64,000 bases of DNA from Hymenobacter edaphi (lineage in GTDB: Bacteria > Bacteroidota > Bacteroidia > Cytophagales > Hymenobacteraceae): contig NZ_QHKM01000015.1 in assembly GCF_003258365.1 (NCBI RefSeq), positions 1 through 64,000 of the forward strand. The letters are read 5' to 3'. Below the pieces are notes generated by a model. It saw only the letters and a program-made list of their open reading frames with translations, did no database searches and was not told the DNA's origin. The position numbers were made by a program, and so were the translations under genes. Shown here in pieces: positions 15,444 to 50,087 of this stretch; position 1 is the first letter of the stretch, and every line of letters starts with the position of its first letter.

Positions 15444-15537
15444 TAGGAGTTAGGAGTCAGAAGCTAGGAGCTAGGATGAATGTTGTTCTGCTGCCGCTTT
15501 TCGCTCCTGGCTTCTAGCTCCTAACTTCTAACTCCTC
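15444..15537. repeat. Intergenic inverted repeat with heptad-array arms (ccmB/ccmC)
   Basis: Left arm 15444-15478 is five 7-bp units (TAGGAGT, TAGGAGT, CAGAAGC, TAGGAGC, TAGGATG). Right arm 15503-15537 is five units of the complementary type (GCTCCTG, GCTTCTA, GCTCCTA, ACTTCTA, ACTCCTC). The arms pair with mainly transition mismatches around a 24-nt loop. The element begins 5 nt after the ccmB stop and ends 2 nt before the ccmC ATG. Confidence 0.85.
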
Positions 15538-15539
15538 CA

Positions 15540-16211
15540 ATGAAAAACGCCTGGTGGAAAGTGTTGACGGTGGTGCTTTTGCTCTACACCGTGGTGATGG
15601 GCCTGCTGGGCCACGCGCCGCGGCTGGCCATCCTCAACGAAACCATCCGTAACCTGTACTTCCACGTGCCGATGTGGTTCGGCATGACCATCATCCTGTT
15701 TGCCTCGGTGGTGTACTCGGTGCGCTACCTGCGCAAGCCCTCCGACCGCCTCGACGTGCTGGCCCATCATACGGCCGTGACCGGTATCGTAATGGCCGTG
15801 CTCGGGCTGGCCACGGGCAGCATCTGGGCGCGCTACACCTGGGGCACCTGGTGGACGTCTGACCCGCGCCTGAACGGGGCCGCCGTGGCCGTGATGATCT
15901 ACGGCGCCTACCTGGTGCTGCGCTCCTCCATCACCGACGAGCAGCAGCGGGCCCGCATATCGGCCGTCTACAACATTTTCGCCTTCTGCGCCGCCATTCC
16001 GCTGCTGTTCATCCTGCCCCGCCTCACCGACTCGCTGCACCCCGGTGCCGGCGGCAACCCGGGCTTCAACAAGTACGACCTCGACAACAACATGCGCCTG
16101 GTGTTTTACCCGGCCATCATTGCCTGGACGCTGCTCGGCGTCTGGATTACCAACGTGTCGGTGCGCCTGGCCCTCGTCAAACACAAGCTGTATGAAAAAC
16201 AACTGGCTTAA
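15540..16211 (+). CDS. ccmC: Heme lyase/exporter component CcmC
   Basis: A 223-residue polytopic membrane protein that loads heme onto CcmE. The Trp-rich heme-handling (WWD) signature is visible as 'RYTWGTWWTSDPRL', with conserved His residues on the flanking periplasmic loops ('YFHVPMWFGM', and 'DSLHPGAG' near residue 165). It lies downstream of ccmB across the heptad palindrome, and its 3' end overlaps the ccmD-like gene by 20 nt, indicating translational coupling. Confidence 0.94.
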   Translation: MKNAWWKVLTVVLLLYTVVMGLLGHAPRLAILNETIRNLYFHVPMWFGMTIILFASVVYSVRYLRKPSDRLDVLAHHTAVTGIVMAVLGLATGSIWARYTWGTWWTSDPRLNGAAVAVMIYGAYLVLRSSITDEQQRARISAVYNIFAFCAAIPLLFILPRLTDSLHPGAGGNPGFNKYDLDNNMRLVFYPAIIAWTLLGVWITNVSVRLALVKHKLYEKQLA

Positions 16212-16440
16212 CCCGTTCTCGCGCCGCGCCCTGCTGGCGCTGGCCGCCGTGCTGCTGCCGCTGTCGGTAGTGCTGGCCCAAACGCCCGAAGCCGGCCCCG
16301 AAATGGCCGATCAGCTGCGCCAGGACGGCAAGATCTACGTGGTGGTGGCCGTCATCGTGGTCATCGTGGTGGGGCTGCTGGCCTACCTGGTCAGCATCGA
16401 CCGGAAGGTGAGCCGCCTGGAGCGGGAGCTGCGCGACTAG
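16192..16440 (+). CDS. CcmD-like small membrane protein
   Basis: An 82-residue protein starting at the ATG inside the last codons of ccmC (20-nt overlap). An N-terminal hydrophobic segment (LLALAAVLLPLSVVLAQ) looks like a signal anchor or cleavable signal peptide. A second hydrophobic helix (VVVAVIVVIVVGLLAYLV) is followed by a charged coiled tail (DRKVSRLERELRD). Size, topology and position between ccmC and ccmE match the CcmD family, which stabilises the CcmABC-CcmE complex. Sequence conservation in CcmD is weak, so the call rests mainly on context. Confidence 0.72.
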   Translation: MKNNWLNPFSRRALLALAAVLLPLSVVLAQTPEAGPEMADQLRQDGKIYVVVAVIVVIVVGLLAYLVSIDRKVSRLERELRD

Positions 16441-16449
16441 CTCCCAGGG

Positions 16450-16542
16450 GGTGAAATTGGGCGGCGGTGAATCAGCGCGTAGCCCGGCGGGCTCACCTGA
16501 TTGGCGTCATGGTTTCCCAAGTTCACCTTTCCCAACTTCACC
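16450..16542. repeat. Intergenic inverted repeat with 15-bp (7+8) unit (ccmD-like/ccmE)
   Basis: Right arm 16513-16542 is two tandem 15-mers differing at one base (TTTCCCAAGTTCACC, TTTCCCAACTTCACC). Left arm 16450-16472 carries the complementary pattern GGTGAA-n-TTGGG-n-GGTGAA. It is the same architecture as the other gap palindromes, but it ends 89 nt before ccmE and is the least regular one. Confidence 0.7.
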
Positions 16543-16631
16543 TGTGAATTTTTCCGCCCCTCGGGGTTGTTTCAACGGGCTGGCTGCTGCGTAGCCGGTC
16601 CAATTCCGCTGCTGCTGTAGTCTTAAGCACC

Positions 16632-17057
16632 ATGAAAAAAACTCACTTGCTGGCCCTCGTGGTCATTGCCATTGCCATCAGCATCGTCATGGCCACCGCC
16701 GGCGACGCGTCGGTGTACGTCTCGTTTACGGAAGCCAAGGAACTGGCCGCCGACGGCGACCTGCGCAAGGTGCACGTGGTGGGCCGCCTGCCCCACGACG
16801 CGCAGAAGAACATCGTCGGGATGCAGTACAACCCGACGCTGGACCCGAATTACTTCGCCTTCACGCTGGTGGATACCAACCACGTGCAGCAGCAGGTGGT
16901 GTACTACAACCCCAAGCCGCAGGACTTCGACAAGTCGGAGCAGGTGGTCATCACCGGCAACATGCGCAACGACATCTTCGTGGCCGACAAAATCCTGCTG
17001 AAGTGCCCGTCGAAGTACGTGGAGAAGGAAGTGAAAGGGGCTACCGCTTCGCGGTAA
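16632..17057 (+). CDS. ccmE: Cytochrome c maturation heme chaperone CcmE, CXXXY variant
   Basis: A 141-residue periplasmic heme chaperone with an N-terminal membrane anchor (about residues 5-23) and an OB-fold beta-barrel. In typical CcmE the heme is bound covalently by His in an HxxxY motif; here the corresponding segment 'LLKCPSKY' gives Cys125 and Tyr129, a CXXXY motif, and there is no His after residue 84. CXXXY CcmE proteins are known from archaea and some sulfate reducers as a variant system I. It lies between the ccmD-like gene and ccmF with the same orientation. Confidence 0.92.
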   Translation: MKKTHLLALVVIAIAISIVMATAGDASVYVSFTEAKELAADGDLRKVHVVGRLPHDAQKNIVGMQYNPTLDPNYFAFTLVDTNHVQQQVVYYNPKPQDFDKSEQVVITGNMRNDIFVADKILLKCPSKYVEKEVKGATASR

Positions 17058-17175
17058 TGAATAATTAATAGTTAAGAACTAATAATTAGAGCTGGGGCTC
17101 TAGTTGTGGCTTAAAAGGCGCCGGGAGACGGTCATTTTCGCCAATTCTTAATTATTAATTCCTAATTATTAATTG
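17056..17175. repeat. Intergenic inverted repeat with AT-rich heptad arms (ccmE/ccmF)
   Basis: Left arm 17056-17090 is five 7-bp units (AATGAAT, AATTAAT, AGTTAAG, AACTAAT, AATTAGA) and starts inside the ccmE TAA stop. Right arm 17144-17175 is ATTCTTA, ATTATTA, ATTCCTA, ATTATTA and a partial unit, ending 6 nt before the ccmF ATG. The loop is about 53 nt and GC-rich. The AT-rich arms are strikingly unlike the surrounding GC-rich genome. Confidence 0.85.
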
Positions 17176-17181
17176 GAAAAC

Positions 17182-19761
17182 ATGAACATCGGCGACTGGG
17201 GACATTTGGGCGTTATCGTGGCCTTCGTGGCGGCGGTAGTGTCCGCGTTGGGGTATTTTATGGCGGCGCGTGGCCGGGCCCTGGGCGAGGCGGATGCCTC
17301 GTGGCAGCGGCTGGGGCGCGGCGCCTTTCTGGTGCATGGCGTGGCCGTGCTGGGCGTCATCGTGGCCCTGTTCGGCATCATCCACGGGCACCGCTACGAG
17401 TACTACTACGCCTGGTCGCACAGCAGCAACCACCTGCCGGTGTACTACATGATTTCCTGCTTCTGGGAAGGGCAGGAGGGCTCGTTCCTGCTCTGGATTT
17501 TCTGGCACGTGCTCATCGGCTTCTGGCTGATTCGCTCGGCTAAGCAGTGGGAAGCGCCGGTTATGGCCGTGTTTGCCTTCGTGCAGCTGTTCCTCACCTC
17601 CATGATTCTGGGCGTGATGCTGGGCGGCATCAAGCTGGGCTCCTCGCCCTTCATTCTGATGAAGGAGTTTATGCCCGACCTGCCGGTGTACAAGCTCAAC
17701 CCCGACTTCGTGCCGCAGGACGGCACCGGCCTGAACCCGCTGCTGCAGAACTACTGGATGGTGATTCACCCGCCCACGCTGTTCCTGGGCTTTGCTCTCA
17801 CGCTGGTGCCCTTCGCCTACGCGGTGGCCGGCCTCTGGAAAAACCAGCTGACGCAGTGGGTGCAGCCGGCCATCCGCTGGAGCCTTATCGGCGGCGGCAT
17901 CCTGGGCGTGGGCGTGATGATGGGCGCTTACTGGGCCTACGAAACGCTGAACTTCGGCGGCTACTGGAACTGGGACCCGGTGGAAAACGCCGTGTACATC
18001 CCGTGGCTGGTGCTGGTGGCGGCCCTGCACGCGCTGGTGCTCTGGCAGCGCGGCAAAACCGGCCTGCGCACCGCCTTTAGCCTGGTCGTTACCACGTTCC
18101 TGCTGGTGCTCTACGCTACCTTTCTCACCCGCTCGGGCGTGCTGGGCAACGCCTCGGTGCACTCCTTCACCGACCTGGGCCTCTCGGGCCAACTGCTGAT
18201 TTACCTGCTGGCCTTCGTGGTGCTCAGCATCGGGCTGCTGGTGTGGCGCTGGAAGCAGATTCCGGTGTCGGAAAAGGAGCTGACCATGTACCACCCCGAG
18301 CTGTGGGTGTTCATTGGGGCCACGGTGCTCTGCCTGGGCGCCTTCCAGGTGCTCGTCACCACCAGCATTCCGGTCTACAACGCCATTGTGGGCTTTTTCG
18401 GCGTGAAGTCGAACCTGGCCCTGCCCGCCGACCAGATTGCCCACTACACCAAGATTCAGCTATGGCTGGGCGTGTCCGTGGCCCTGCTCTCGGGTATTGC
18501 CCAGCTGCTGTGGTGGCAGCGCAACGACAAGGAATCGGTTAGCGCCACCTTTACCATTCCGGCTATTCTCACCCTGCTCGGGGCCAGCCTCGTCATCCTG
18601 CTGGTGCGCCAGAACGGCGACCATCAGATGTCCCTGCCCTACATTGCCCTGCTGACCACCGGTCTGTTCGGGCTGCTGGCCAACGTGAGCATGCTCATTC
18701 AGCTGCTGCGCCGCGGGGTACGCCTCTCGGGCGGGGCCGTGTCGCACATTGGCATCGCGCTGATGCTGCTGGGCATCCTGGCCTCGGCCGGCTACTCCAA
18801 GATTATTTCGCAGAACACCTCCGGCCTGCTCTACTCGCGCGAATTCTCCGAGGAGCTGAACCGCGACAACGTGCTGCTCTGGCGCAACGACGCGGCCAAA
18901 ATGGGCAAGTACGAGCTGACCTACACTGGCCAGTACTTCGACGTGCCCGGCGTGCCGGAATACGTGAACAAGGAGTTGCTGTTCCCCGTCGCCAACGACG
19001 AGTACAAAGCCATTGCCCGCGGCGAAATCAAGGCCGGGGAGAAGACCTACTACAAGGCCGGCGACACGCTGACCATTCGCCCCGAGGACACCTACTACCG
19101 CGTGACCTACAAGCAGCCCAAGACCGGCGAGGAGTTTGTGCTCTTCCCGCGCGCCCAGGCCAACGAGGAAATGGGCGGCCTGCTCGCCTCGCCCGACATC
19201 AAGCTGTTCTGGGACCACGACATCTACTCGCACATTTCGTCGGTGCCCGACCCCAACAAGGAAAAGGACTGGTCGGAGGCCAAGCAGTTCACCGTGGCCA
19301 TGAACGACACCTTGTTCCTGAACGACTACTTTGCCGTGTTTAAGAACGCCGAGCCCGCGCACAACACCGCCGGCCTGGGCCTGGCCAAGGACGACATTGC
19401 CGTGCAGGGCGACATCATCGTGTACGGCGAGAAAGGCCGGCAGTACCACGTACACCCCGTGTTCCTGGTGAAAAACGGTCTGGTGGGCCGCGTGGCCGAC
19501 GAGGTGGAAGACCTCGGCCTGCGCATCACCCTCGACAACATCGACCCGCAGAAGGGCAAGTTCACGTTCGGGGTGGCCACCACCCAGAAGGACTACATCA
19601 TCCTGAAAGCCATGGAAAAGCCCTTCATCAACCTGCTCTGGAGCGGCACGCTGCTCATGGGCCTGGGCTTCGGTATTGCGGTGGTGCAGCGCGGCCGCAA
19701 GCCCCGCCCGGTACCGGCTGGCAAAGCTTCGCGCGCCGCCAAGCAGGCGCAGGTAGCCTAG
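17182..19761 (+). CDS. ccmF: Cytochrome c heme lyase subunit CcmF
   Basis: An 859-residue polytopic membrane protein with the CcmF/CcmC/CcsA heme-handling domain. The WWD signature is 'FGGYWNWDPVENAVYIPW', and conserved His and Trp residues are seen in 'FGIIHGHRYEYYYAWSHSS' and 'MISCFWEGQEGS'. A soluble periplasmic domain occupies about residues 540-800, followed by a last transmembrane helix. It transfers heme from holo-CcmE to apocytochrome c. The ATG at 17182 is preferred over a TTG 9 nt upstream. No CcmG or CcmH gene follows; transcription ends at a perfect palindromic terminator. Confidence 0.95.
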   Translation: MNIGDWGHLGVIVAFVAAVVSALGYFMAARGRALGEADASWQRLGRGAFLVHGVAVLGVIVALFGIIHGHRYEYYYAWSHSSNHLPVYYMISCFWEGQEGSFLLWIFWHVLIGFWLIRSAKQWEAPVMAVFAFVQLFLTSMILGVMLGGIKLGSSPFILMKEFMPDLPVYKLNPDFVPQDGTGLNPLLQNYWMVIHPPTLFLGFALTLVPFAYAVAGLWKNQLTQWVQPAIRWSLIGGGILGVGVMMGAYWAYETLNFGGYWNWDPVENAVYIPWLVLVAALHALVLWQRGKTGLRTAFSLVVTTFLLVLYATFLTRSGVLGNASVHSFTDLGLSGQLLIYLLAFVVLSIGLLVWRWKQIPVSEKELTMYHPELWVFIGATVLCLGAFQVLVTTSIPVYNAIVGFFGVKSNLALPADQIAHYTKIQLWLGVSVALLSGIAQLLWWQRNDKESVSATFTIPAILTLLGASLVILLVRQNGDHQMSLPYIALLTTGLFGLLANVSMLIQLLRRGVRLSGGAVSHIGIALMLLGILASAGYSKIISQNTSGLLYSREFSEELNRDNVLLWRNDAAKMGKYELTYTGQYFDVPGVPEYVNKELLFPVANDEYKAIARGEIKAGEKTYYKAGDTLTIRPEDTYYRVTYKQPKTGEEFVLFPRAQANEEMGGLLASPDIKLFWDHDIYSHISSVPDPNKEKDWSEAKQFTVAMNDTLFLNDYFAVFKNAEPAHNTAGLGLAKDDIAVQGDIIVYGEKGRQYHVHPVFLVKNGLVGRVADEVEDLGLRITLDNIDPQKGKFTFGVATTQKDYIILKAMEKPFINLLWSGTLLMGLGFGIAVVQRGRKPRPVPAGKASRAAKQAQVA

Positions 19762-19778
19762 CCTGCGCACAACGCGCC

Positions 19779-19821
19779 AACCGCAACGGGCAGCCCAGCT
19801 GGGCTGCCCGTTGCGGTTTAT
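19779..19821 (+). terminator. Perfect palindromic terminator after ccmF
   Basis: 18-bp perfect arms (19779-19796 with 19801-19818) around AGCT, itself palindromic, giving a fully symmetrical 40-bp palindrome followed by TTTA. Located 17 nt after the ccmF stop. Confidence 0.8.
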
Positions 19822-20013
19822 AGCCTGGCCGGCGTGGCGCTGTTCCGGAGGGCGAAGGGCGTTGATCAACAACAGTGCAGCGTGAGCCAGCCGTTTGCGC
19901 TGTTCGGGCTGACTTCGCGCACAAACAGCGCAAACGCCTGGGGCGTTGTCGGCAACCAGACCATTGGCCGCCTGCCGGGCGCCACGCCTGAGCACGGAGC
20001 GGCAGCACTCCCC
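19822..20013. other. Gene-free stretch with nested inverted repeats
   Basis: Between the ccmF terminator and the terminator of the next (convergent) gene. It contains a perfect 10-bp palindrome at 19861-19870 and a perfect 13-bp inverted repeat (19892-19904 with 19924-19936); a GCGCTGTTC motif occurs twice. A 75-codon open frame on the plus strand shows no protein-like composition. I see no gene here; it may be a decayed repeat element. Confidence 0.35.
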
Positions 20014-20054
20014 AAAAAAACAACGGGCGGCCCGCCACTGCGAGCCGCCCGTTG
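20014..20054 (-). terminator. Rho-independent terminator (minus strand)
   Basis: A perfect 11-bp stem (20021-20031 with 20044-20054) with a run of seven T on the minus strand (20014-20020). It closes the cargo gene that ends at 20081. Confidence 0.85.
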
Positions 20055-20080
20055 CCGATAACCGACAAGCAGGATTACCC

Positions 20081-21967
20081 TTACTTGCTGATGCTGATGG
20101 TGCGCATCATGTACTGGTCGCCGTCGAGCACCTTGAGGGTGTAGAGGCCGTTGGCCAGGTGCGAGAGGTTGAGCTTGTTCTCGAAATTGTCGCGGGCGGA
20201 AGCCGCGTACACGCGCTGGCCGAGCAGGTTGCTTACTTCCACCTGCAGGCTGCTCTTGGCGTTGGCGCCCTGAATCTTCAGCGTGAACTCACCAGTCGAG
20301 GGGTTCGGGTACACGTTCACGGCCCCGGCCAGTGCCTTCGAGGTGCCGGTCGTCACGTTCAGCACCGCGTCGATCAGGAACGCGCCCAGGTTGCTGGAGC
20401 CCAGGTCCTGCGGCGTGTTGGCGCCGGTGGCGTTCATCGTGGTGAAGACGTAGTAAGCGCCGGTGCGGGTCGGGTTTTCGCCCTGCGTGGCAATGGGGTA
20501 GAACTGCGTCGCGCCGGTGGGGTTGGTCTGCGCAATACCCACGTAGAAGCTACCCGCGGTGAGCGACACCGGGGTGGGGAAGGTGAACGACTTGCGCGTG
20601 TTGGCGTCGGCGGCCGTCAGCACGTAATCGGGCGTGCGGGCCAGCAGCACGCCGGTGCTGCTGAGGGCCACGGCGTAAATCGTACGGCCAACGGCCGGGT
20701 TGGCCGTGGTGCCAGCGAGCAGGTAGGCATCCACGCCGGTGAGGGTGCGGGCCGAGGCAACGGTGTACTTGTTGGCCAGGGCCCCGGCGGTGTAAGCCGT
20801 GGGCAGGCCCAGGCCCGACTGGCTGTCGGGCGTCGAGCCGGCGTAGCCCAGCACGTTATCCGTCACCTCCTGGGTGAGGTTGCGCGAGTTGTTGGTCGGC
20901 GAATCGTCGGCCAAGGGCAGGTTTACGGTTACGGTGTTGGTGCCCTGGTTGGCCGGCGTAAACGCATCGAACGTGATGGTTTCGGAAGCCCCGGAGGCGA
21001 GGGTACCCGTCTGCTTGGTGTTGCTGAACGTGTTGGCACCCGTTACGCTCAGCGTAACCGGCAGGCTGGTCTGCGCCTGCACGCCCACGTTGCGCACCAC
21101 GGCCTGAATCACGTGCGCGCCCGAGCGGGGCAGCTTGCGCAGCGTGTACACCACTTGCACCTCGGCGTCGTTCTGCTGCGGCGCGCGGAAGCGGTAGGTG
21201 CGGCCCGCGTCGGGCAGCACGGCGTTGGTGGTGAAGTGCCCGGCCAGCGAGCCGGCCACCCCGGCCGTGAACGTGGAGGTGCTCCAGGCCGAAGCTGCGG
21301 ATTTGGCCACCATCAGGCGGTCGGCCACGCCGTTGCTCGAACCCTTCAGGCCAATTACGAACGGCTGGCTGGTCGCCGCGGCCGTGGTGGGCGTCCAGGT
21401 GCCGTACACGAACTCGATGGTGTTGGAGCCTTCGTACAGCTTGATCTGAAACTGCATTGTGGCGTACTGAGCCGGCACCGTGCCCGGCTTATCCGCCAGG
21501 TTCTTGAACTGAATCGTGCACACGCGGTTGCCGGCGGCGCCGGTGGTCGACACGCGGTACTCCGTCGGCGAAGTGGTCTGGTTCAGCGCCCCGTACAGGT
21601 CGGTGTACGAAATAGCCGCGAGGATATTCGTATCGGCCGGGTCGATGCCGCCGATAACGTTAAGCCCGCCGGAAGGGGCCACGTTGCCCAGCTTGATGAA
21701 GCCGTTGGTGTTCAGGATGAACTGCGTGAACGACTGCCCGTTGTAGCTGAACGAGAAGCCGATGCTCTGGACGGCCGAGTTGGCGTCGTCGGTGTTGGCC
21801 GTAGCAATGACCGAACCCGCCGAACCCAGGTCCGTGTAGGTGCCGGCCGCGTTCTGCGCGTTTGCGGCGAGGTAATTCAGGCCTTGGGCCGAGGCGGCAG
21901 TTGCGGCCAGCGTGAGCAGACCGAGCAGAGCCAAGCCGCGGCCGGCAGCGCGTTGAAGAGGAAACAT
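20081..21967 (-). CDS. Secreted T9SS cargo protein, paralogue 1 of a tandem pair
   Basis: A 628-residue protein with a signal peptide (cleavage near ATAASAQ). The N-terminal half resembles a secreted beta-rich domain ('SIGFSFSYNGQSFTQFILNT', 'IEFVYGTWTP'). The middle has CARDB/immunoglobulin-like segments ('VIQAVVRNVGVQAQTSLPVT', 'NTVTVNLPLADDSPTNNS'). A type A C-terminal sorting domain (YPNPSTGEFTLKI ... MMRTISISK) directs T9SS export and surface attachment. The function of the exported part is unknown. It shares architecture and a nearly identical C-terminal domain with the gene at 22082-24016, consistent with tandem duplication. Confidence 0.85.
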   Translation of the reverse strand: MFPLQRAAGRGLALLGLLTLAATAASAQGLNYLAANAQNAAGTYTDLGSAGSVIATANTDDANSAVQSIGFSFSYNGQSFTQFILNTNGFIKLGNVAPSGGLNVIGGIDPADTNILAAISYTDLYGALNQTTSPTEYRVSTTGAAGNRVCTIQFKNLADKPGTVPAQYATMQFQIKLYEGSNTIEFVYGTWTPTTAAATSQPFVIGLKGSSNGVADRLMVAKSAASAWSTSTFTAGVAGSLAGHFTTNAVLPDAGRTYRFRAPQQNDAEVQVVYTLRKLPRSGAHVIQAVVRNVGVQAQTSLPVTLSVTGANTFSNTKQTGTLASGASETITFDAFTPANQGTNTVTVNLPLADDSPTNNSRNLTQEVTDNVLGYAGSTPDSQSGLGLPTAYTAGALANKYTVASARTLTGVDAYLLAGTTANPAVGRTIYAVALSSTGVLLARTPDYVLTAADANTRKSFTFPTPVSLTAGSFYVGIAQTNPTGATQFYPIATQGENPTRTGAYYVFTTMNATGANTPQDLGSSNLGAFLIDAVLNVTTGTSKALAGAVNVYPNPSTGEFTLKIQGANAKSSLQVEVSNLLGQRVYAASARDNFENKLNLSHLANGLYTLKVLDGDQYMMRTISISK

Positions 21968-22007
21968 GGGCGTTGGTAAGGGGGTAAGTGTGTGGATGGT
22001 GGAGGGG

Positions 22008-22055
22008 AAAAGTACGCCAACGGGCGGGCCGGCGCAGGTGGCCGCTCGTTGGCGT
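22008..22055 (-). terminator. Terminator of cargo paralogue 2 (minus strand)
   Basis: A 9-bp perfect stem (22014-22022 with 22047-22055) with a GC-rich 24-nt loop that can fold further, followed on the minus strand by ACTTTTC. Moderately strong. Confidence 0.55.
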
Positions 22056-22081
22056 GGTTAGGGGCCGCCGTGCGGGGCGGC

Positions 22082-24016
22082 TTACTTGCTGATGCTGATG
22101 GTGCGCATCATGTACTGGGCGCCGTCTTTCACCTTGAGGGTGTAAAGGCCGTTGGCCAGGTGCGAAAGGTTGAGCTTGTTCTCGAAGTTGTCACGGGCTG
22201 CGCCCAAGTACACGCGCTGGCCGAGCAGGTTGCTTACTTCCACCTGCAGGCCGTGCTTGGCGTTGGCGCCGCGCACGTCCAGCGCAAACTCACCGGCCGA
22301 GGGGTTCGGGTACACGCTCACGGCCGTTTCCAGTGCCTTCGAGGTGCCGGTGACGGTGGTTACGGCCGCCTCGATCATGTAGCGGCCGAAGTTACGGCTG
22401 CTGGCATCGTTGGGCGTGCCGCCGGCGCCGGTGAGGGTGAAGAACGTGCCGGGGCGCGTGGGTACTTCCGCCTGGGTGCCCATGGGGAAGTAGTTGGTGC
22501 CACCGGCGGCGTTGGCCTGCACAAAACCCGCCAGGAACTCGCCCGCCGGCAGGCTGATGGGCGTGGGGAAGGTGAAGGTTTTGCGGTTGTTGGCGTCGGC
22601 CGCCGTCACCACGTAGTTGGGCGTGCGTCCGAGCAGGGCGCCGGTGCTGCTGTACGCGGCCGCGTACACCGTCTTGCCCACGGCTATCGACGTCGCGTCC
22701 TCGTAGATGTACGCCGTAATGGCGGTGAGCAGCCGCGGCCCGCCGACGGCGTACTTCACGGCGAAGGCCGATTCAAAGGCGCTGGTGCTGGCATTGAAGC
22801 CCACGGCGCCGGTGGCCGGGCCGGTCGTGGCCACGCTGAACACGTTGTTGGTGACCTGCTGGGCCGCCGTGGCGGAGTTGTTGCTGTTGTTGTTGTCGCC
22901 GAGCAGGCTCACGGTCAGGGTATTGGTGCCGGGCGCCGTGACCGTGTACCCGTCGAAGATTACCGTGGCGGCGCTGCCGGCCGTCAGCGAGGGCACCGAC
23001 TTGATGCTGGTGAAGCTGTTCGCGCCGGCTACCGTCAGCGTGACCGGAATCAGCGTTTGCGTAGCCGTGCCCACGTTGCGCACCACGGCCTGCACCACGT
23101 GCGGCGCCCCGGACGAAACCGGCAGCCGGTCCAGCGAATAAATCAGCTGCACTTCGATGTCGTTGGCGTACTGCGGCGCAAACCGAAACGTGCGGCCCGC
23201 ATCGGGCGTCACCGTGCTGCGAAAGTTCAGCGCGTTGTCCACCCGGGTCGGGCTGTTGACGTAAGGCTCGTCGATGTAGGTGATGGTGCTCCACGGGTTC
23301 ACCGAGGCGTGGCTGATCAGCAGCACCTGGCCCTGCAGCGGCCCGGTGCCCTTGAGCCCGGCCGTGGCCCAGTGCGGCGCGGCCGTGGCCGGCGCCGTGG
23401 TACCCGTAGCGGTACCGTACACGAACTCGATGACGTTGGTGGTTTCGTAGAGCTTGACCTGGAACGAGAAGTTGGCGTAGTGCTTGGGCGTCGCGCCGGC
23501 CTTGTCGCTCACGTTTTTCCACTGGATGGTGCACACCCGGTTCGGCGCGGTGCCGGTGGTAGCCACCCGGTATTCCGCCCCGCCCGCGCCGTTGCCGGCC
23601 TCCAGGTCGAAGTTGAACGGCATCAGCAGGTTCACATCGGCAGCGTTGATGCTGTTGACGGGGCCGCCCTGGGTGGGCTGGTTTTCCAGCGTAAACAGCG
23701 CGGCGCTGCTGGGCGCAGTAGTGCCCAGCTTGAGGAAACCGTTGGTGTTCAGGATGAACTGCGTAAAGCCCTGCCCGTTGTAGTTGAACCCGAAGCCGAT
23801 GTTCTGGGGCGTGGAGTTGGCGTCGTCGGTGCTGGCGGTAGCAATGGCCGTGCCCGTCGTGCCCAGGTCGGTGTAGGTGCCGGCCACGTTCTGCGCGATG
23901 GGCGCGGTGTAGTTCAGCGTCTGCGCGGTGGCGGCGGTGCCAGCCAACGTGAGCAGACCCAGCAGGGCCAGGCCGCGCCAGTTACCCAAACGGGCGACAC
24001 GTAGAGGTGAAAGCAT
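22082..24016 (-). CDS. Secreted T9SS cargo protein, paralogue 2 of a tandem pair
   Basis: A 644-residue paralogue of the neighbouring cargo gene with the same layout: signal peptide ending near TAATAQ, N-terminal beta-rich domain ('NIGFGFNYNGQGFTQFILNT'), CARDB-like middle ('VVQAVVRNVGTATQTLIPVT') and type A sorting domain (YPNPSAGEFALDV ... MMRTISISK). The N-terminal halves have diverged but the first about 250 bp from the 3' end are almost identical at DNA level to paralogue 1. It is divergent from the DUF2520 gene. Function of the exported part unknown. Confidence 0.85.
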   Translation of the reverse strand: MLSPLRVARLGNWRGLALLGLLTLAGTAATAQTLNYTAPIAQNVAGTYTDLGTTGTAIATASTDDANSTPQNIGFGFNYNGQGFTQFILNTNGFLKLGTTAPSSAALFTLENQPTQGGPVNSINAADVNLLMPFNFDLEAGNGAGGAEYRVATTGTAPNRVCTIQWKNVSDKAGATPKHYANFSFQVKLYETTNVIEFVYGTATGTTAPATAAPHWATAGLKGTGPLQGQVLLISHASVNPWSTITYIDEPYVNSPTRVDNALNFRSTVTPDAGRTFRFAPQYANDIEVQLIYSLDRLPVSSGAPHVVQAVVRNVGTATQTLIPVTLTVAGANSFTSIKSVPSLTAGSAATVIFDGYTVTAPGTNTLTVSLLGDNNNSNNSATAAQQVTNNVFSVATTGPATGAVGFNASTSAFESAFAVKYAVGGPRLLTAITAYIYEDATSIAVGKTVYAAAYSSTGALLGRTPNYVVTAADANNRKTFTFPTPISLPAGEFLAGFVQANAAGGTNYFPMGTQAEVPTRPGTFFTLTGAGGTPNDASSRNFGRYMIEAAVTTVTGTSKALETAVSVYPNPSAGEFALDVRGANAKHGLQVEVSNLLGQRVYLGAARDNFENKLNLSHLANGLYTLKVKDGAQYMMRTISISK

Positions 24017-24150
24017 GAGGCTGGAGTAAGCGTGGGTGAATAGAAAGAAGAAAAAGGGTGAAAACGGACCCGCCTCGCGCCGCCAACGGCGGCAATGGCG
24101 CTACAAAATGCGAAATTTCGGCGTCCTTTCAGCATTCAAGCCCTGGGTAC

Positions 24151-24972
24151 TTGCCTGTTTCCTTTAAAATAGCCCTGCTGGGGGCCGGCCGCGTGGCCGC
24201 CCAACTGGCCCCCGCCCTGGCCCGCGCCGGCCACCGGGTGGTGGCCGTCTGGAGCCGCCAGGCCGCTTCGGCCCGGGCCGTGGCCGACCCGCTGGGCGCC
24301 GCCGCGCTGCACGGCCCCGCCCCCGATCTGCGCCGCGCCCCCGCCGCCGACCTCTACCTGCTGGCCGTGCCCGACGACGCGGCCGCCGCCGTGCTGGCGG
24401 CCGCGCAGTGGCCCGCGGGCGCGCTGGTGGCCCACACCTCCGGCGCGCTGCCGCTGGCCGTGTTTGCGGCCCGGCCCGAGGTGCGCGGCGCCGTGTTCTA
24501 TCCCCTGCAGACCTTCAGCCCCGGCCGCGCCATCGACTGGCCGCAGGTGCCGCTGTGCCTGGAGGCGGCCGATGCGGACGGGCTGGCTGTGCTGCAGCAG
24601 GTGGCGGCCTCGCTTAGCCAGCGGGTGCTGCTGGTGGCCTCGGTGCCGCGCCGGCAGCTGCACGTGGCGGCCGTGTTTGCCAGCAATTTCACCAACCACC
24701 TGCTGGGCCTGGCCGATGCCCTGCTCACCGAAGCCCAGCTGCCCGCCGACCTGCTGACCCCGCTGGTGCGCGAAACCGTCGACAAGGCCCTGCGCAACCC
24801 GCCGTTTCAGGTGCAAACCGGCCCAGCCATCCGCCACGACGCGGCCACCATTGCCACCCACACGGCGGCGCTAGCGGCCCACCCGCGCTGGCAAGCCCTC
24901 TACACGCAGCTTACGGCCAGTATTCAGGCCAGCGCGGCGGCGCCCGGGCCCGGGCCGGCCGAGCCGGGCTAA
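24151..24972 (+). CDS. Rossmann-fold/DUF2520 domain protein
   Basis: About 273 residues. An N-terminal Rossmann motif GAGRVA in 'FKIALLGAGRVAAQLAPALA' indicates NAD(P) binding. The C-terminal half is the DUF2520 helical domain ('ASNFTNHLLGLADALL', 'PLVRETVDKALRNPP', 'QTGPAIRHDAATIATH'), related to ketopantoate-reductase-like dehydrogenases. Substrate unknown. The frame is open from a GTG at 24058, but that would leave only 41 nt for two divergent promoters, so I prefer the TTG at 24151, just before the Rossmann strand. The start is uncertain. Confidence 0.8.
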   Translation: MPVSFKIALLGAGRVAAQLAPALARAGHRVVAVWSRQAASARAVADPLGAAALHGPAPDLRRAPAADLYLLAVPDDAAAAVLAAAQWPAGALVAHTSGALPLAVFAARPEVRGAVFYPLQTFSPGRAIDWPQVPLCLEAADADGLAVLQQVAASLSQRVLLVASVPRRQLHVAAVFASNFTNHLLGLADALLTEAQLPADLLTPLVRETVDKALRNPPFQVQTGPAIRHDAATIATHTAALAAHPRWQALYTQLTASIQASAAAPGPGPAEPG

Positions 24973-25011
24973 ACATCCGGGCCGGGTTCCGACTTTATGC
25001 AGCGGCCTGCG

Positions 25012-25019
25012 TACCTTTG
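25012..25019 (+). promoter_or_regulatory. Promoter -7 box TACCTTTG upstream of the ferredoxin gene
   Basis: Perfect TAnnTTTG match, 33 nt before the GTG start at 25053. An in-frame TTG inside the box (25017) is thereby excluded as translation start. Confidence 0.7.
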
Positions 25020-25052
25020 CGGCCTTATTTTCACCTCGCAAGCAACTTTCGC

Positions 25053-25385
25053 GTGAAAGCCGTCAATATCACCTTCAAGTTTTCGGACGGGCAGCCCGAG
25101 CAGACCCACGTGGCCGCGGAAGGCGAGTCGGTACTCGACGTGGCGCTGAACAACGGCATCCAGCTGCAGCACAACTGCGGCGGCGTGTGCGGCTGCAGTA
25201 CCTGCCACGTATATGTGCTGCAGGGCGGCGACGAGCTGCCGGAAATCAGCGACAAGGAAGAGGACTTCATCGACCGCGCCGTCAATCCCCGCCTCAGCTC
25301 CCGCTTAGCCTGCCAGTGCGTGGTACAGGCCGCCAGCGAAAACCTCGTCATCGAAATTCCCCAGCAGGACTTCCTGGGCCACTAA
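25053..25385 (+). CDS. Adrenodoxin-type [2Fe-2S] ferredoxin
   Basis: 110 residues. The cluster ligands C42-x5-C48-x2-C51-x35-C87 match the vertebrate/Isc-type ferredoxin pattern; extra cysteines are C46 and C89. It is followed by iscX, as in isc operons, so a role as electron donor to Fe-S cluster assembly is likely. No iscS, iscU or hscAB genes are in the window. The GTG start is chosen from the promoter box and family length. Confidence 0.92.
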   Translation: MKAVNITFKFSDGQPEQTHVAAEGESVLDVALNNGIQLQHNCGGVCGCSTCHVYVLQGGDELPEISDKEEDFIDRAVNPRLSSRLACQCVVQAASENLVIEIPQQDFLGH

Positions 25386-25391
25386 GTTTTT

Positions 25392-25513
25392 GAAGTGCGG
25401 AATGTGGCTGCATGTGAGTAATGTGCAAAATGCCGTTCGACTCCGGTGCTGAATAGCCCTGCATCGACTCAATTCCCACATTCAATCACATTCACCCCAC
25501 ATTTCCCACACCC
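25392..25513. repeat. Intergenic inverted repeat with 9-10-bp units (fdx/iscX)
   Basis: Left arm 25392-25428 repeats an AATGTG core every 9-10 bp (GAAGTGCGG, AATGTGGCTG, CATGTGAGT, AATGTGCAA). Right arm 25472-25513 repeats CACATT with similar period. The element starts 6 nt after the ferredoxin stop and ends 6 nt before the iscX ATG. Confidence 0.75.
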
Positions 25514-25519
25514 AACAAG

Positions 25520-25756
25520 ATGACCCACTTCGAGCCGCCGATCCACTGGCAAGACCACGAGGACATTGCCATGGCCCTCTACGAAAAGTTCGGCGACGAC
25601 TTCACCGAGGCCAAAATCTACCGCATCCGCTTCACCGACCTGCTGGAGTGGGTGTTGAGCCTGCCCAACTTCGAGGGCACCCGCGAACAGGCCAACGAAG
25701 GCCACCTAGAGCAAATCCAGGCCAAGTGGGTGTACGAGTGGCGCGATAATCAATAA
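25520..25756 (+). CDS. iscX: Fe-S cluster assembly protein IscX
   Basis: A 78-residue acidic protein of the IscX/YfhJ family. The typical pattern is visible: 'HWQDHEDIAMALYEKFGDDF', 'IRFTDLLEWVLSLPNFEG' and 'ANEGHLEQIQAKWVYEW'. IscX binds IscS and iron and modulates cluster assembly. Its position directly after an Isc-type ferredoxin supports the assignment. It is followed by kdsC across another heptad palindrome. Confidence 0.92.
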   Translation: MTHFEPPIHWQDHEDIAMALYEKFGDDFTEAKIYRIRFTDLLEWVLSLPNFEGTREQANEGHLEQIQAKWVYEWRDNQ

Positions 25757-25766
25757 TCTGGCTGGC

Positions 25767-25847
25767 AAGTAGCAGGTGACACGGGACAGGTTAAGCTGGC
25801 CGAGGTGTTGCCGGTTACGTGTCACGTGTTACCTGGCGCATGTCACC
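25767..25847. repeat. Intergenic inverted repeat with heptad arms (iscX/kdsC)
   Basis: Left arm 25767-25794 is AAGTAGC, AGGTGAC, ACGGGAC, AGGTTAA. Right arm 25813-25847 is GGTTACG, TGTCACG, TGTTACC, TGGCGCA, TGTCACC. Eighteen of 22 positions of the best-paired segment match. The last units of the right arm contain the kdsC start codon (ATG 25840-25842). Confidence 0.82.
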
Positions 25848-26322: not shown

Positions 26323-26372
26323 CCTCCTACGCAGCTTCACGATTTATTCACAACGGGCTGGTAAGGGCAGAG

Positions 26373-26402: not shown

Positions 26403-26440
26403 CCGGACATTTTGTTCACCTTTCTCCTTCCCGCTTACCA

Positions 26441-38527: not shown

Positions 38528-38624
38528 GAAGTGAGATTTTGAGACATGAGAAGTGGGATGAACGACCTCGCAACGAGGCGGCCGTCTTACTTCTCATGTC
38601 TCATTTTCTCATGTCGCTCCACCC
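38528..38624. repeat. Intergenic inverted repeat with 7-bp-period arms (mreB/mreC)
   Basis: Left arm 38528-38561 repeats a TGA-containing unit (GAAGTGA, GATTTTGA, GACATGA, GAAGTGG). Right arm 38585-38620 is TCTTACT, TCTCATG, TCTCATT, TTCTCATG, TCGCTCC. A 15-bp segment pairs perfectly (38540-38554 with 38589-38603). Each arm contains one 8-mer among 7-mers. It fills the whole gap between the mreB stop and the mreC ATG (38625). Confidence 0.85.
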
Positions 38625-40093: not shown

Positions 40094-40282
40094 CGTCATT
40101 CCGAGCGAAGTTGAGGAATCCCGCTGGATAGTATTGTCATGCTGAGCTTGTCGAAGCATCTCTACCGCTTCGCCAGATAGCAACCTGATATCAGCACGCG
40201 AGATTCTCGACTTCGCTCGGAATGACGAACTGAGAAAGAGCCAACGAAGCGGTAGAGATGCTTCAACTGCGCTCAGCATGAC
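40094..40282. repeat. Two interleaved REP-like palindromes (mreD/mrdA)
   Basis: Pair 1: a perfect 17-bp inverted repeat (40094-40110 with 40211-40227), CGTCATTCCGAGCGAAG type. Pair 2: 40136-40172 with 40245-40282, the GTCATGCTGAGC ... ACCGCTTCG type, imperfect only near the middle. The arms occur in crossed order (L1-L2-R1-R2), as if one element inserted into another. Confidence 0.75.
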
Positions 40283-40305
40283 GTTCTTTTTCAGTCGTTC
40301 CACGT

Positions 40306-40347
40306 CAGCCCGCGGGATGTCTCGGCTGCGCTCGACATAACGGGCTG
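40306..40347. repeat. Third REP-like palindrome (mreD/mrdA)
   Basis: A 7-bp outer stem (CAGCCCG with CGGGCTG) encloses a further ATGTC/GACAT stem and the sequence type of common REP halves (TCGAGCGCAGCCGAGAC on the minus strand). Downstream, 40359-40376 holds a small perfect hairpin (GGCCAAAC-CT-GTTTGGCC). The rest of the 454-bp gap is unremarkable up to the mrdA promoter. Confidence 0.55.
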
Positions 40348-42384: not shown

Positions 42385-42507
42385 ACGTCATGCTGAGCCT
42401 GTCGAAGCATCTCTACCGCTTCGTCAGATAGTAAAATAGCTCAGCACGACAACCTGAATCGGGCCCAACGAAGCGGTAGAGATGCTTCGACAGGCTCAGC
42501 ATGACGT
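42385..42507. repeat. REP-like palindrome with perfect 40-bp arms (mrdA/rodA)
   Basis: 42385-42424 is exactly complementary to 42468-42507 (40 of 40), with a 43-nt loop. It is the same family as pair 2 upstream of mrdA (GTCATGCTGAGC ... CTCTACCGCTTCG). The long rodA reading frame runs into the right arm and would add a spurious N-terminus MLRQAQHDV. Confidence 0.93.
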
Positions 42508-43851: not shown

Positions 43852-44110
43852 CACGAATGATTGTCCGCGGCCCGTCGGAGGTCCAAGGTGGCTGCGGAGG
43901 ACCTCCCGGGATGTCCGGGGAAGGCGCGGATGATGCTACAGGGCCTCCCTGAAAGTCCGACGGGCCGCGGACGATTGTCCGCGCCTTCCCGGGATGTCCG
44001 GGAAGCTCGTGGATGATTGTCCGCGCCTTCCCCGGAAGTCCGACGGGCCGCGGATGATGCTACGGGGCTTCTCAGGGTGGCCGGTTGTTCGCGTATGATG
44101 GCCCGCGCCC
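43852..44110. repeat. Tandem array of about 41-bp imperfect repeats
   Basis: At least four consecutive units start at 43925, 43966, 44008 and 44049 (41, 42, 41, 41 bp), with degenerate units before (from 43852) and after (from 44090). The unit core is CGCGGATGATTGTCCGCG plus a GC-rich second half; both halves are self-complementary (CGCGGA/TCCGCG and CTTCCCGG/CCGGGAAG), so each unit can form two small hairpins. Not coding by appearance. The remainder of the gap shows nothing else except a TAACTTGG box near 44156. Confidence 0.8.
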
Positions 44111-48661: not shown

Positions 48662-48701
48662 CCTCAGAAAAAGCCTGCTTCAAGTGGGCAAGTTAGCCAA
48701 A

Positions 48702-49025
48702 ATGCCTACACTAACCGTGCAAAACCTGCCCGGCGGCCCTATCAACGTACAACCCGGCCAGACGTTGCTTCGGGCCCTGCACGAAGCCGGCCACGACTGG
48801 ATGCACGCCTGCGGGGGCCGCGGCCGCTGCACCACCTGCCGCATCGAGCTGCTCAGCGGCGCCGACTGCCTGGCCCCGCCCACCGCCCACGAGCTGCGCT
48901 ACCTCACCACCGGCCGCCTCGCCGCCACCGCCCGCCTCACCTGCCAGGCCCAACTGCCTGAGGGCGAAGTCGTCGGGCGGGTGCCCGAGGCCACCAAGCT
49001 GCCGCACGTGCAGTACGCGGAGTGA
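48702..49025 (+). CDS. [2Fe-2S] ferredoxin, second copy
   Basis: 107 residues. Ligands C37-x5-C43-x2-C46 and C81 in 'HACGGRGRCTTCRIELL' and 'ARLTCQAQL'; an adrenodoxin-like/2Fe-2S plant-fold ferredoxin. The ATG at 48702 gives the family N-terminus MPTLTVQNLPGG. Monocistronic by position; electron-transfer partner unknown. Confidence 0.9.
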   Translation: MPTLTVQNLPGGPINVQPGQTLLRALHEAGHDWMHACGGRGRCTTCRIELLSGADCLAPPTAHELRYLTTGRLAATARLTCQAQLPEGEVVGRVPEATKLPHVQYAE

Positions 49026-49141
49026 AGCGGCAACACCGGCCGTCATGGCGCGCGGAACGAAGCACCCGCCGGAAGACGTAGCCAATTCTGCCTGCGGGAG
49101 CACCGCCGACGCAATATCCACAGCCCAACATCGCGCAGCCG

Positions 49142-49184
49142 AAAAACAGCGCTGCCCGAAACGGCAGTTACCAGTTTCGGGCAG
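49142..49184 (-). terminator. Terminator of recO (minus strand)
   Basis: A perfect 11-bp stem (49152-49162 with 49174-49184), then on the minus strand GCGCTGTTTTTC. It lies about 80 nt after the recO stop; the rest of the gap 49026-49263 shows nothing else. Confidence 0.65.
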
Positions 49185-49263
49185 TGGTTGTTGGCCCGTT
49201 GGCCAGGACCGGTTGCTTCGGCTGCGTCTCCCAGTGACGGCCGGGGTGGGCCGCCTTGGCGGG

Positions 49264-49983
49264 CTACAGCTCCGCCAGCACGTCCGACAGCACGTCCAGG
49301 GAGCGGACGTCGCCCATGTTTTCGACGTGCAGCTGGTAGTAGCGCAGCAGAATGGTGAGCAGCTCGCGGCGCACGCGGCCGTTGGGCACGGTGGCCGGGG
49401 CTTCGTCGCGCAGCAGCTCGTCGAAGAAGTGCTCGAACTCCTGGAAGCGCAGCACCGTGGGGCGCGAGGTGGCCGGCAGGTTGGCATCGGTGGCGAAGGC
49501 CACCTGCTCGGTTATCTGCCGGCCCGAATCCGGCCCGAAGCCCAGGTAATGGCTCAGGTGCAGCAAAAACGCCAGCGCGAAGTTCTCGAAGCCCTCTTCC
49601 TGCTCGTCGAAGGCCACAATGGACTGGTAGAGGTACGCAAACAGGGCCGCGTTTTCCTCTTCCTCGCGCAGCACCCGGCTCACCACTTCCGAAAGAAACA
49701 GCACCACGCTGCTCTTGCGCACGTCGTAGGGCAGGCTGCGGAAGGGGCGCAGGCAGCGAAACTCCGAGAGGCGCGTCAGGCCCCCGCGCGGCGACACGTA
49801 GGCCACCAGATCGAGCAGGGTGAAGGGCTGAAACAGCGCGATGCGCCCCGGCGGCTTGGCCTTGCGCACCCCGTTGACGATGTAGGACTGCACCCCGCGC
49901 TGCTCGGTGTATACGCGCGCAATGATGCTGGTTTCGCGGTATTTGAGGTAGTTCAGGACGATGCCCCGGGTCTTGATCAGCAT
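49264..49983 (-). CDS. recO: DNA repair protein RecO
   Basis: 239 residues. The N-terminal OB fold begins 'KTRGIVLNYLKYRETSIIARVYTEQ' with 'YIVNGVRKAKPP', followed by the helical domain ('FLSEVVSRVLREEEENAALF'). RecO loads RecA with RecR in gap repair. It lacks the zinc-finger cysteines found in some RecO proteins. It lies directly downstream of porZ; the gap is entirely an octad palindrome that abuts its start codon. Confidence 0.93.
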   Translation of the reverse strand: MLIKTRGIVLNYLKYRETSIIARVYTEQRGVQSYIVNGVRKAKPPGRIALFQPFTLLDLVAYVSPRGGLTRLSEFRCLRPFRSLPYDVRKSSVVLFLSEVVSRVLREEEENAALFAYLYQSIVAFDEQEEGFENFALAFLLHLSHYLGFGPDSGRQITEQVAFATDANLPATSRPTVLRFQEFEHFFDELLRDEAPATVPNGRVRRELLTILLRYYQLHVENMGDVRSLDVLSDVLAEL

Positions 49984-50087
49984 ATGGCGAGATGGTGAGG
50001 TGGTAAAATGGCGAGTTGTCGTTTGGAAGGCCGGCCCTGCACAAGCAGCACGGCACTCGCCATTTCACCACCTCACCAGTTCACTAT
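49984..50087. repeat. Intergenic inverted repeat with octad arms (porZ/recO)
   Basis: Left arm 49984-50015 is ATGGCGAG, ATGGTGAG, GTGGTAAA, ATGGCGAG. Right arm 50056-50087 is CTCGCCAT, TTCACCAC, CTCACCAG, TTCACTAT. Arms pair at 27 of 32 positions octad by octad; all but one difference are transitions. The left arm touches the recO start codon and the right arm includes the porZ stop codon (50084-50086). Confidence 0.88.

What the first reader, a model, noticed from the sequence alone, without database searches (positions are those of the whole stretch)
15444..50087. A class of gap-filling palindromes whose arms are 7-, 8-, 9/10- or 15-bp tandem arrays
Seen directly: seven gaps (15444-15537, 16450-16542, 17056-17175, 25392-25513, 25767-25847, 38528-38624, 49984-50087) carry an imperfect inverted repeat in which each arm is a run of 3-5 copies of a short unit. 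The units are unrelated between loci (TAGGAGT, AATTAAT, TGTCACG, ATGGTGAG, and so on), so this is conservation of architecture rather than of sequence. All seven lie between co-directional genes, never between divergent or convergent ones, and all but one fill the gap from stop codon to start codon. Differences between arms are largely transitions, as if pairing is preserved. Where units contain TAG, TAA or TGA, a period of 7 or 8 puts stops in all frames. Inference: they may insulate or couple translation, or guide mRNA processing within operons. I know of no named family with this definition.
Basis: partly seen in the sequence, partly recalled or inferred. Interest (0 to 1): 0.82.

Follow-up and report, generated by a model that had tools for sequence, protein, structure and literature searches.

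The report
Repeat-armed hairpins at gene junctions
In Hymenobacter and its relatives, some gaps between neighbouring genes are filled by a hairpin whose two arms are short tandem repeats, and closely related species often keep a hairpin in the same gap while its sequence has changed, which makes it a useful case for asking how structure can outlast sequence.

Summary
The pattern is real and genome-wide, but not quite as described. Six of the seven named gaps hold an inverted repeat stronger than any of 200 shuffles; arm periodicity is firm in four, marginal in two, absent in one. In 1.66 Mb of this Hymenobacter-like genome 57 of 1,050 gaps hold such an element (43 of 655 co-directional, 6 of 188 convergent, 8 of 207 divergent), against 0 of 1,050 gene-interior windows. 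They are not confined to co-directional genes, and most units recur. 40 of 43 co-directional elements start within 15 nt of the upstream stop codon, 31.1 expected. In the nearest sister genome an inverted repeat is present on both sides in 26 of 30 gaps although 18 of 30 count as replaced in sequence; in a more distant one persistence is weaker (5 of 13). One 8-bp family has multiplied in one clade. Best reading: dispersed palindromic repeats renewed by copying and slippage, forming a stem at the stop codon if transcribed; an effect on translation is unproven. Closest precedent: the heptanucleotide-repeat P6b stem of the Nostoc tRNA-Leu intron. New variant of a known kind.

The parts
15445..15476 (+). 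5' arm, TAGGAGT-type 7-bp units, ccmB-ccmC gap
   Evidence: 27 of 32 pairs, lag 7 p<0.0005
15505..15536 (+). 3' arm of the same palindrome
16450..16542 (+). ccmD-ccmE gap: possibly a decayed GGTGA-type element; palindrome not above chance here, but L009 (H. jeollabukensis) has a GGTGAAAT-type array at this place
17063..17095 (+). 5' arm, AATTAAT-type 7-bp units, ccmE-ccmF gap
   Evidence: 28 of 33 pairs, lag 7 p=0.0005
17141..17174 (+). 3' arm of the same palindrome; the orthologous gap holds tandem-arm palindromes in 27 of 47 other loci examined
25395..25509 (+). palindrome with AATGTG-type units between a Fer2-domain gene and a Fe-S_assembly (PF04384) gene; strong inverted repeat, arm periodicity not significant as a whole
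25773..25800 (+). 5' arm, GTGACAC-type 7-bp units
   Evidence: 22 of 26 pairs, lag 7 p=0.0005
25810..25835 (+). 3' arm of the same palindrome
38532..38570 (+). 5' arm, TGAGA-type units, mreB-mreC gap
   Evidence: periodicity marginal
38574..38611 (+). 3' arm of the same palindrome
49984..50022 (-). arm next to the start of the RecO gene, 8-bp GGTGA family
   Evidence: 32 of 38 pairs, lag 8 p<0.0005
50050..50087 (-). arm at the stop of the PorZ-like gene

Best explanation
These are dispersed palindromic repeats of several families. Their arms are a few copies of a 7- or 8-bp unit; they sit next to stop codons, most often filling the space between the stop of one gene and the start of the next co-directional gene. 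SHOWN: abundance, position at the stop codon, polarity (5' arm G-rich, 3' arm C-rich), presence of a palindrome on both sides of an ortholog comparison although the sequence is often replaced, multiplication of one 8-bp family in one clade, and a species-specific unit variant. INFERRED: content is renewed by copying between palindromes at different sites (conversion or insertion, perhaps started by breaks at hairpins), together with unit slippage and arm-to-arm correction inside each hairpin, so that a site stays palindromic although its letters change. INFERRED: when transcribed, the element folds into a stem whose base lies at the stop codon, like the published ribosome termination structures, and may limit re-initiation or protect the upstream message. 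I give a real function about 0.35 and tolerance without function about 0.65.
For: Abundance: 57 of 1,050 gaps in 1.66 Mb versus 0 of 1,050 gene-interior windows; 44 of 533 gaps versus 0 of 533 shuffled gaps, one shuffle each. Position: 72 of 72 co-directional elements of the high-GC set start within 15 nt of the stop, non-tandem inverted repeats 48 of 108; low-GC set 17 of 18. Own genome: 40 of 43 against 31.1 +/- 2.3 expected by random placement in the same gaps. True palindromes: arm identity 0.77 in register, 0.64 one unit out of register. Persistence with replacement, own genome against G002: 26 of 30 co-directional ortholog gaps have an inverted repeat on both sides; 18 of 30 count as replaced and 16 of these 18 keep an inverted repeat on both sides. 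Dispersed family: 49 loci of the 8-bp family in about 2.6 Mb; at E<=1e-10 44 hits in G000, 48 in G002, 4 each in G005 and G006, 0 in G001, G003, G004, G007, with at most 40 candidates scored per genome. Unit variant: (TTGTGARN)x3 9 times in G006, 1 in G005, 0 in the other six, while (GGTGARNT)x3 occurs 141 times in G000 and 137 in G002.
Against: No near-identical second copy: 0 of 57 elements have another copy at 90% identity and 80% coverage in the 1.66 Mb, 4 of 57 at 80% identity; but non-tandem palindromes do no better, 0 of 86 and 9 of 86. The TAGGAGT elements of the window and of C11:476885 and the GAGTTTA element of C11:448330 have no relative above 75% over most of their length in the whole genome, so a donor for the replaced sequences is not seen. 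No transposase is tied to the elements; the one Y1_Tnp gene found was not linked to them. Persistence weakens with distance: partner inverted repeat in 5 of 13 directed own-G006 comparisons and 6 of 14 G002-G006. Some ortholog pairs look like in-place concerted change (C11:700561, ATTGCTGC versus ATGGCTGA types).
Confidence: 0.55

Rival explanations
1. Sequence-indifferent RNA hairpins under selection: the cell needs a stem between stop and start at these junctions (to insulate, couple or stabilise), and any sequence that folds will do.
For: Stem base at the stop codon. An inverted repeat on both sides in 26 of 30 ortholog gaps, and in 16 of the 18 that count as replaced, against 11 of 24 replaced gaps that have only non-tandem inverted repeats. 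In 16 alignable ortholog pairs 28 double changes, 10.6 expected from the pooled rate, 13 of them pair-to-pair; arms diverge less than loops, 0.142 versus 0.209. 39 of 40 own-genome tandem gaps of 80-200 bp fold with z<-2, against 113 of 280 gaps without a strong inverted repeat.
Against: No G.U over A.C excess on the transcribed strand, 119 to 107. 44 of 56 loci have a ccmB-ccmC spacer of 60-260 bp without a palindrome and 17 of 47 lack one at ccmE-ccmF. Core orientation of the 8-bp family is near random to transcription, 23 to 18. Weaker persistence in the more distant species. The pooled covariation expectation ignores differences in rate among elements, which inflates the contrast; arm-to-arm correction in DNA would give the same signal.
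Confidence: 0.3
2. Self-maintaining mutational structures: unit slippage plus hairpin-templated correction between arms keeps the palindrome and drifts the unit, with neither mobility nor function.
For: Unit length and sequence differ together in both arms between related species at ccmE-ccmF, 7-bp AGTTAAG and 8-bp AGTTAGAG types within Pontibacter. A mixed array at own C11:1042911 grades from GTGACAG to TTAGGAG-like units.
Against: Multiplication of the 8-bp family with a shared core in one clade. Abrupt changes among dissimilar units, for example C11:476885 with TAGGAGC, AATTATG and AATGTGCC types in three species. Swaps with the non-tandem CGTCATGCTGAGC-type palindrome at C11:462239 and C11:717729.
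Confidence: 0.25
3. Ordinary intrinsic terminators or remnants of them.
For: They are hairpins after stop codons.
Against: The terminator scan of 14000-27000, which covers five of the seven loci, finds no sense-strand site inside these palindromes; one lies on the antisense strand inside the 17056 element (17102-17087) and one on the sense strand 10 nt behind the 16450 locus (16552-16566); 15 sites found, 11.0 expected. The flanking genes include ccm genes and mreB-mreC, where a stop of transcription between them would be odd (operon status not tested). Other strong inverted repeats are commonest in convergent gaps (77 of 188, co 93 of 655); these are not (6 of 188, co 43 of 655).
Confidence: 0.03

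Closest known systems
P6b stem-loop of the Nostoc tRNA-Leu(UAA) group I intron (Class I TDNGATT, Class II NNTGAGT heptanucleotide repeats)
   Same: Hairpin whose arms are degenerate 7-nt repeats; similar structure while the unit class is wholly and repeatedly replaced (PMC4476775 and PMC3488679, passages only).
   Different: One intron locus in cyanobacteria; here 57 of 1,050 gaps in 1.66 Mb, between genes, with 7- and 8-bp units and many families, in Bacteroidota.
Ribosome termination structure (RTS)
   Same: Stable stem immediately after the stop codon, enriched when the next start is at least 25 nt away (PMC7518266: abstract, outline and part 2 of the Results).
   Different: RTS is a functional category found as a folding bias, without tandem-repeat arms as a criterion; re-initiation was not measured here.
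REP elements, including the CGTC-tagged class
   Same: Dispersed extragenic palindromes; those fewer than 16 nt from a stop are reported to down-regulate translation (PMC12306157, passages, which cites an earlier study). CGTC-tagged REPs: search listings of PMC3733652 only.
   Different: REPs are short conserved palindromes, many with a tag and a RAYT partner; here the arms are 7-8 bp arrays, no such tag is seen at the ends of the 8-bp consensus, and one Y1_Tnp gene was found.
TAACTGA heptamer direct repeats (Beggiatoaceae, Cyanobacteria, five Bacteroidetes) and cyanobacterial STRR
   Same: 7-bp tandem arrays in intergenic DNA, mostly just upstream of start codons (PMC4679880, passages). The AGTTGTC family here resembles its reverse complement (my comparison by eye). 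STRR is recalled, not read.
   Different: They are direct repeats: 169 direct sets and one inverted in the main genome of that paper. Here both arms are present.

Membership tests
Heptanucleotide-repeat stem-loop (Nostoc P6b type) | hairpin arms are tandem repeats of a 7-nt unit | tested here: met
   periods 7 (60), 8 (42), 6 (1), 9 (1) of 104 elements, so met for 60 of 104 and nearly for 42 more
Heptanucleotide-repeat stem-loop (Nostoc P6b type) | lies in the P6b region of a group I intron | tested here: not met
   intergenic; no Rfam match at gathering threshold in the window
REP element | dispersed extragenic palindrome in many copies | tested here: met
   8-bp family: 49 loci in about 2.6 Mb; the other families are low in copy
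REP element | conserved short palindrome with GTAG or CGTC tag | tested here: not met
   by eye: several unit families and no such tag at the ends of the 8-bp consensus; feature taken from an abstract in a listing
REP element | partner RAYT transposase | tested here: inconclusive
   one Y1_Tnp match in the genome; no link to the elements examined
Ribosome termination structure | stable RNA stem directly after the stop codon | tested here: met
   predicted only:
Ribosome termination structure | controls re-initiation | not testable with these tools
   needs reporters or ribosome profiling
MITE | terminal inverted repeats with target-site duplication, related to a transposase | tested here: inconclusive
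   filled and empty gaps looked at by eye, no clear duplication; not scanned systematically

The most novel reading that the evidence does not exclude
A dedicated process writes short tandem units of changing sequence and folds them back into palindromes at stop-start junctions, so that structure is inherited at a site independently of sequence. The fixed polarity (G-rich strand running 3' towards the centre, as at fused telomere ends) would fit template-directed unit addition followed by fold-back copying. The same architecture in Nostoc plasmids would make this a process shared by two phyla.
Probability: 0.1. Interest if true: 0.88.

Novelty: new variant of a known kind. Interest (0 to 1): 0.62.

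Why it matters
It offers natural experiments in which a nucleic-acid structure stays at a site while its sequence is exchanged, between species whose shared proteins have a median identity of 95% (own genome and G002) or 92% (own genome and G006). That makes two open questions testable: whether post-stop hairpins between genes are selected as structures, and how dispersed palindromes without an obvious transposase are renewed. It also links an oddity of one cyanobacterial intron to a genome-wide class.

Tried and rejected
Rejected: exclusivity to co-directional genes; unrelated units genome-wide; preservation of RNA pairing shown by transitions; terminators; known RNA family (window: nothing at gathering threshold; L111: seven matches up to E 0.5, all below their gathering scores, the best, RF02901 at 16693-16950 and 16634-16820, not pursued); two independent arrays rather than a palindrome (register test). 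Stop triplets: 40 of 57 left units, 32.9 expected from shuffled units, a weak excess, so the idea of stops in all frames is not strongly supported. Dolichospermum plasmid (85 kb): no element.

Corrections to my own calls: the label 'co' included convergent gaps, a string-matching slip; and later are corrected, and only totals are used (44, not the 49 in my notebook). Two of the nine 'replaced' element-to-element pairs (C11:128202, C11:446154) carry the same unit family on both sides, and C11:67774 and C11:293227 carry related units, so 'replaced' overstates these four. The pair at C11:324816, counted among the 30, is a G- and C-rich palindrome that probably does not belong to the class. A few of the 57 elements may be chance: with p at most 0.01, about two among its 192 gaps with non-tandem inverted repeats.

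Limits: starts and stops come from my own gene caller (no annotation is held for the G genomes); starts are less sure than stops. Arms could reach at most 12 nt into a gene by construction. The other high-GC loci are the same ccm region in many genomes, so pooled tests are not independent. The Nostoc scan had no shuffle control.
Full report
What was checked. The window belongs to a 6.04-Mb genome; by its CcmC protein the nearest named relatives are Hymenobacter jeollabukensis and Hymenobacter sp. 15J16-1T3B, both 98%. Pfam places the named gaps between CcmB, Cytochrom_C_asm, CcmD, CcmE and a second Cytochrom_C_asm gene (ccmC and ccmF by gene order and recall), between a Fer2-domain and a Fe-S_assembly gene, between the latter and a hydrolase-type gene, between MreB and MreC, and between a PorZ-like gene and RecO.

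The seven loci. Six of seven palindromes score above all 200 shuffles; 16450-16542 does not. Arm periodicity is firm at 15444, 17056, 25767 and 49984, marginal at 38528 and 16450, absent as a whole at 25392.

Genome scan. I wrote a gene caller trained on codon use, a DNA-symmetric inverted-repeat finder and an arm-periodicity test. In the first 864 kb, 44 of 533 gaps and 0 of 533 shuffled gaps passed (its 'co' label wrongly includes convergent gaps, so only totals are used). With a stricter test (score at least 18, periodicity p at most 0.01, lag match at least 0.5) and up to four inverted repeats per gap, 1.66 Mb gave 43 of 655 co-directional, 6 of 188 convergent and 8 of 207 divergent gaps, and 0 of 1,050 windows inside genes, 55 of which held some inverted repeat of score 18 or more. 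Strong non-tandem inverted repeats are distributed otherwise: 93, 77 and 22 gaps. The odds of tandem against non-tandem, co versus convergent, differ 5.9-fold (p=2e-5), but the plain rates do not differ significantly in this genome alone (co versus convergent p=0.11, co versus divergent p=0.18). In the pooled high-GC set they do: 83 of 1,077, 5 of 260 and 10 of 261, p=2.5e-4 and 0.03. That pool repeats the ccm region in many genomes and is not independent. In low-GC relatives, again mostly the ccm region, the counts are 18 of 449, 0 of 41 and 0 of 29.

Position rule. In one search, 72 of 72 co-directional elements of the high-GC set start within 15 nt of the upstream stop codon and 61 of 72 end within 15 nt of an in-frame start; for 108 non-tandem inverted repeats the counts are 48 and 32. 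In the low-GC set 17 of 18 start near the stop. Part of this follows from elements that fill short gaps. With random placement inside the same gaps 31.1 +/- 2.3 of 43 would be expected near the stop in the own genome and 40 are seen; in the 11 roomy gaps 8 lie at the stop and 1 at the start, with 3.2 expected at the stop. All 6 convergent elements lie within 15 nt of a stop; of 8 divergent ones 3 lie within 15 nt of a start.

Anatomy. Periods are 7 (60), 8 (42), 6 (1) and 9 (1) of 104; arms match better in register (0.77) than one unit out (0.64), so these are palindromes and not two chance arrays. Unit clusters: 42 of 57 elements in 12 clusters, 15 alone. The 5' arm is G-rich, G-C against C-G pairs 785 to 197; because a palindrome reads the same on both strands, this is a fixed polarity of the element and not of transcription. 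Arrays outside elements that passed the strict test show the same polarity: in co-directional gaps, near starts C-rich 5 of 5 (own) and 8 of 8 (low-GC), near stops G-rich 3 of 3 (own), 3 of 3 (G002 and G006) and 2 of 2 (low-GC); one balanced array fills its gap and two C-rich ones lie mid-gap; in convergent gaps of the own genome 3 of 4 near a stop are G-rich and one balanced. At least two of the five own near-start arrays (C11:166123, C11:751749) belong to palindromes that only a looser test shows. Among arms of passed elements one left arm of G002 or G006 near a stop is C-rich, against the rule. Transition-type mismatches split 119 G.U to 107 A.C.

Comparison with sister species. Between the own genome and G002 (plus window and L009), 30 co-directional ortholog gaps have an element on at least one side; 26 have an inverted repeat on both, in 18 of these a tandem one on both. 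By a local-alignment score against random element pairs 18 of the 30 count as replaced, and 16 of these keep an inverted repeat on both sides; replaced gaps with only non-tandem inverted repeats keep one on both sides in 11 of 24. An earlier directed count for a smaller stretch gave a partner inverted repeat in 32 of 34 tandem gaps and in 13 of 138 gaps without one. Against the more distant G006 the partner has one in only 5 of 13 (own) and 6 of 14 (G002) directed comparisons. At own C11:476885 three species carry TAGGAGC-, AATTATG- and AATGTGCC-type arms. Some gaps swap with a different, CGTCATGCTGAGC-type palindrome (C11:462239 and C11:717729; window 25756 versus L009). In the 16 gaps that do align, arms diverge less than loops (0.142, 0.209) and double changes exceed the pooled expectation (28, 10.6), 13 of them from one pair to another.

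Deeper in the family. Of 80 loci fetched with CcmC, 47 have a ccmE-ccmF gap of 60-260 bp: 20 with a strict and 7 with a weaker tandem-arm palindrome, 3 with another palindrome, 17 with none. The unit differs by clade: AATT types in Hymenobacter, AGTTAAG and AGTTAGAG types in Pontibacter, GAGTCTT in Rufibacter. Several of the 17 keep mainly the 3' array before the start, and 8 of the 17 still fold with z<-2. At ccmB-ccmC 12 of 56 have one; of the other 44 only 3 fold with z<-2 (median -0.5). A hairpin is thus not required there.

One family is clearly dispersed. The 8-bp GGTGAAAT family has a shared core and 49 loci in about 2.6 Mb: 41 in co-directional, 5 in convergent, 3 in divergent gaps; core orientation 23 sense to 18 antisense; 38 of 41 begin between 22 nt before and 3 nt after the end of the upstream gene, three lie far off. 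A probe copy hits 44 places in G000 and 48 in G002 (a palindrome can count twice, and at most 40 candidates were scored per genome), 4 each in G005 and G006, none in the other four. Triple units of GGTGARNT: G000 141, G002 137, G006 18 (reversed control 15), G005 17, G007 4, others 0. Triple units of TTGTGARN: G006 9, G005 1, others 0. Elements of the TAGGAGT and GAGTTTA types have no close second copy.

Outside the phylum. Six tandem-arm palindromes lie in 200 kb (50 kb from each of four Nostoc plasmids: 2, 1, 3 and 0) and none in 85 kb of a Dolichospermum plasmid; the same sliding scan finds 10 in 300 kb of the own genome. Set against the annotation, one starts 7 nt before the end of a gene (L223:41081), one spans a start-to-start gap (L221:28608), one overlaps the end of a gene (L223:31288), two lie inside gaps (L222:24820, L223:41503) and one lies inside an annotated gene (L221:37727).

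Known relatives. In Nostoc the P6b stem of the tRNA-Leu intron is built of 7-nt repeats of one of two classes, with repeated whole-class replacement and similar structure (PMC4476775, PMC3488679: passages). The ribosome termination structure is the nearest functional idea (PMC7518266: abstract, outline, part of the Results). Re-initiation falls off within about 20 nt in six gene pairs of two model species (PMC10666635, abstract). In the listings I saw, searches aimed at such elements (only 17, 21 and 65 name Hymenobacter or Bacteroidetes, and 65 showed 15 of 201 papers) gave no description of them in this group; the library holds open-licence papers only.

Judgement. The class is real. Its best description is dispersed, repeat-armed palindromes at stop codons and stop-start junctions that keep their form by turnover. 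Whether the cell uses the stem is open.

Noticed in passing
window 40097-40319, 42396-42496; own C11:331866, C11:456696: A separate non-tandem palindrome type (CGTCATGCTGAGC...GCATGACG) occurs in several copies and takes the place of tandem-arm elements in some ortholog gaps. It looks like CGTC-tagged REPs (label from search listings).
   Followed up: partly
L129:1423-1974 (G000:C41 about 41082): The only Y1_Tnp match in the genome; six plasmid records match the protein, at most 41.5% identity.
   Followed up: partly
own C11:1276941 and C11:1506252: Long unpaired arrays, about 10 copies of AGTTGCC and about 12 of AGGTGGTG, in gaps; possible raw material for arms.
   Followed up: no
window 43904-44058: 83-bp tandem repeat, 1.9 copies, with inverted-repeat content between two co-directional genes.
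   Followed up: no
L044, L047, L055, L066, L076, ccmE-ccmF gap: Gaps of Pontibacter loci in which the 3' (C-rich) array before the start survives while the 5' arm is mostly lost (by eye).
   Followed up: partly
L024, L030, L035 and others, ccmE-ccmF: About 1 kb between ccmE and ccmF in many Hymenobacter loci, so an extra gene may lie there.
   Followed up: no
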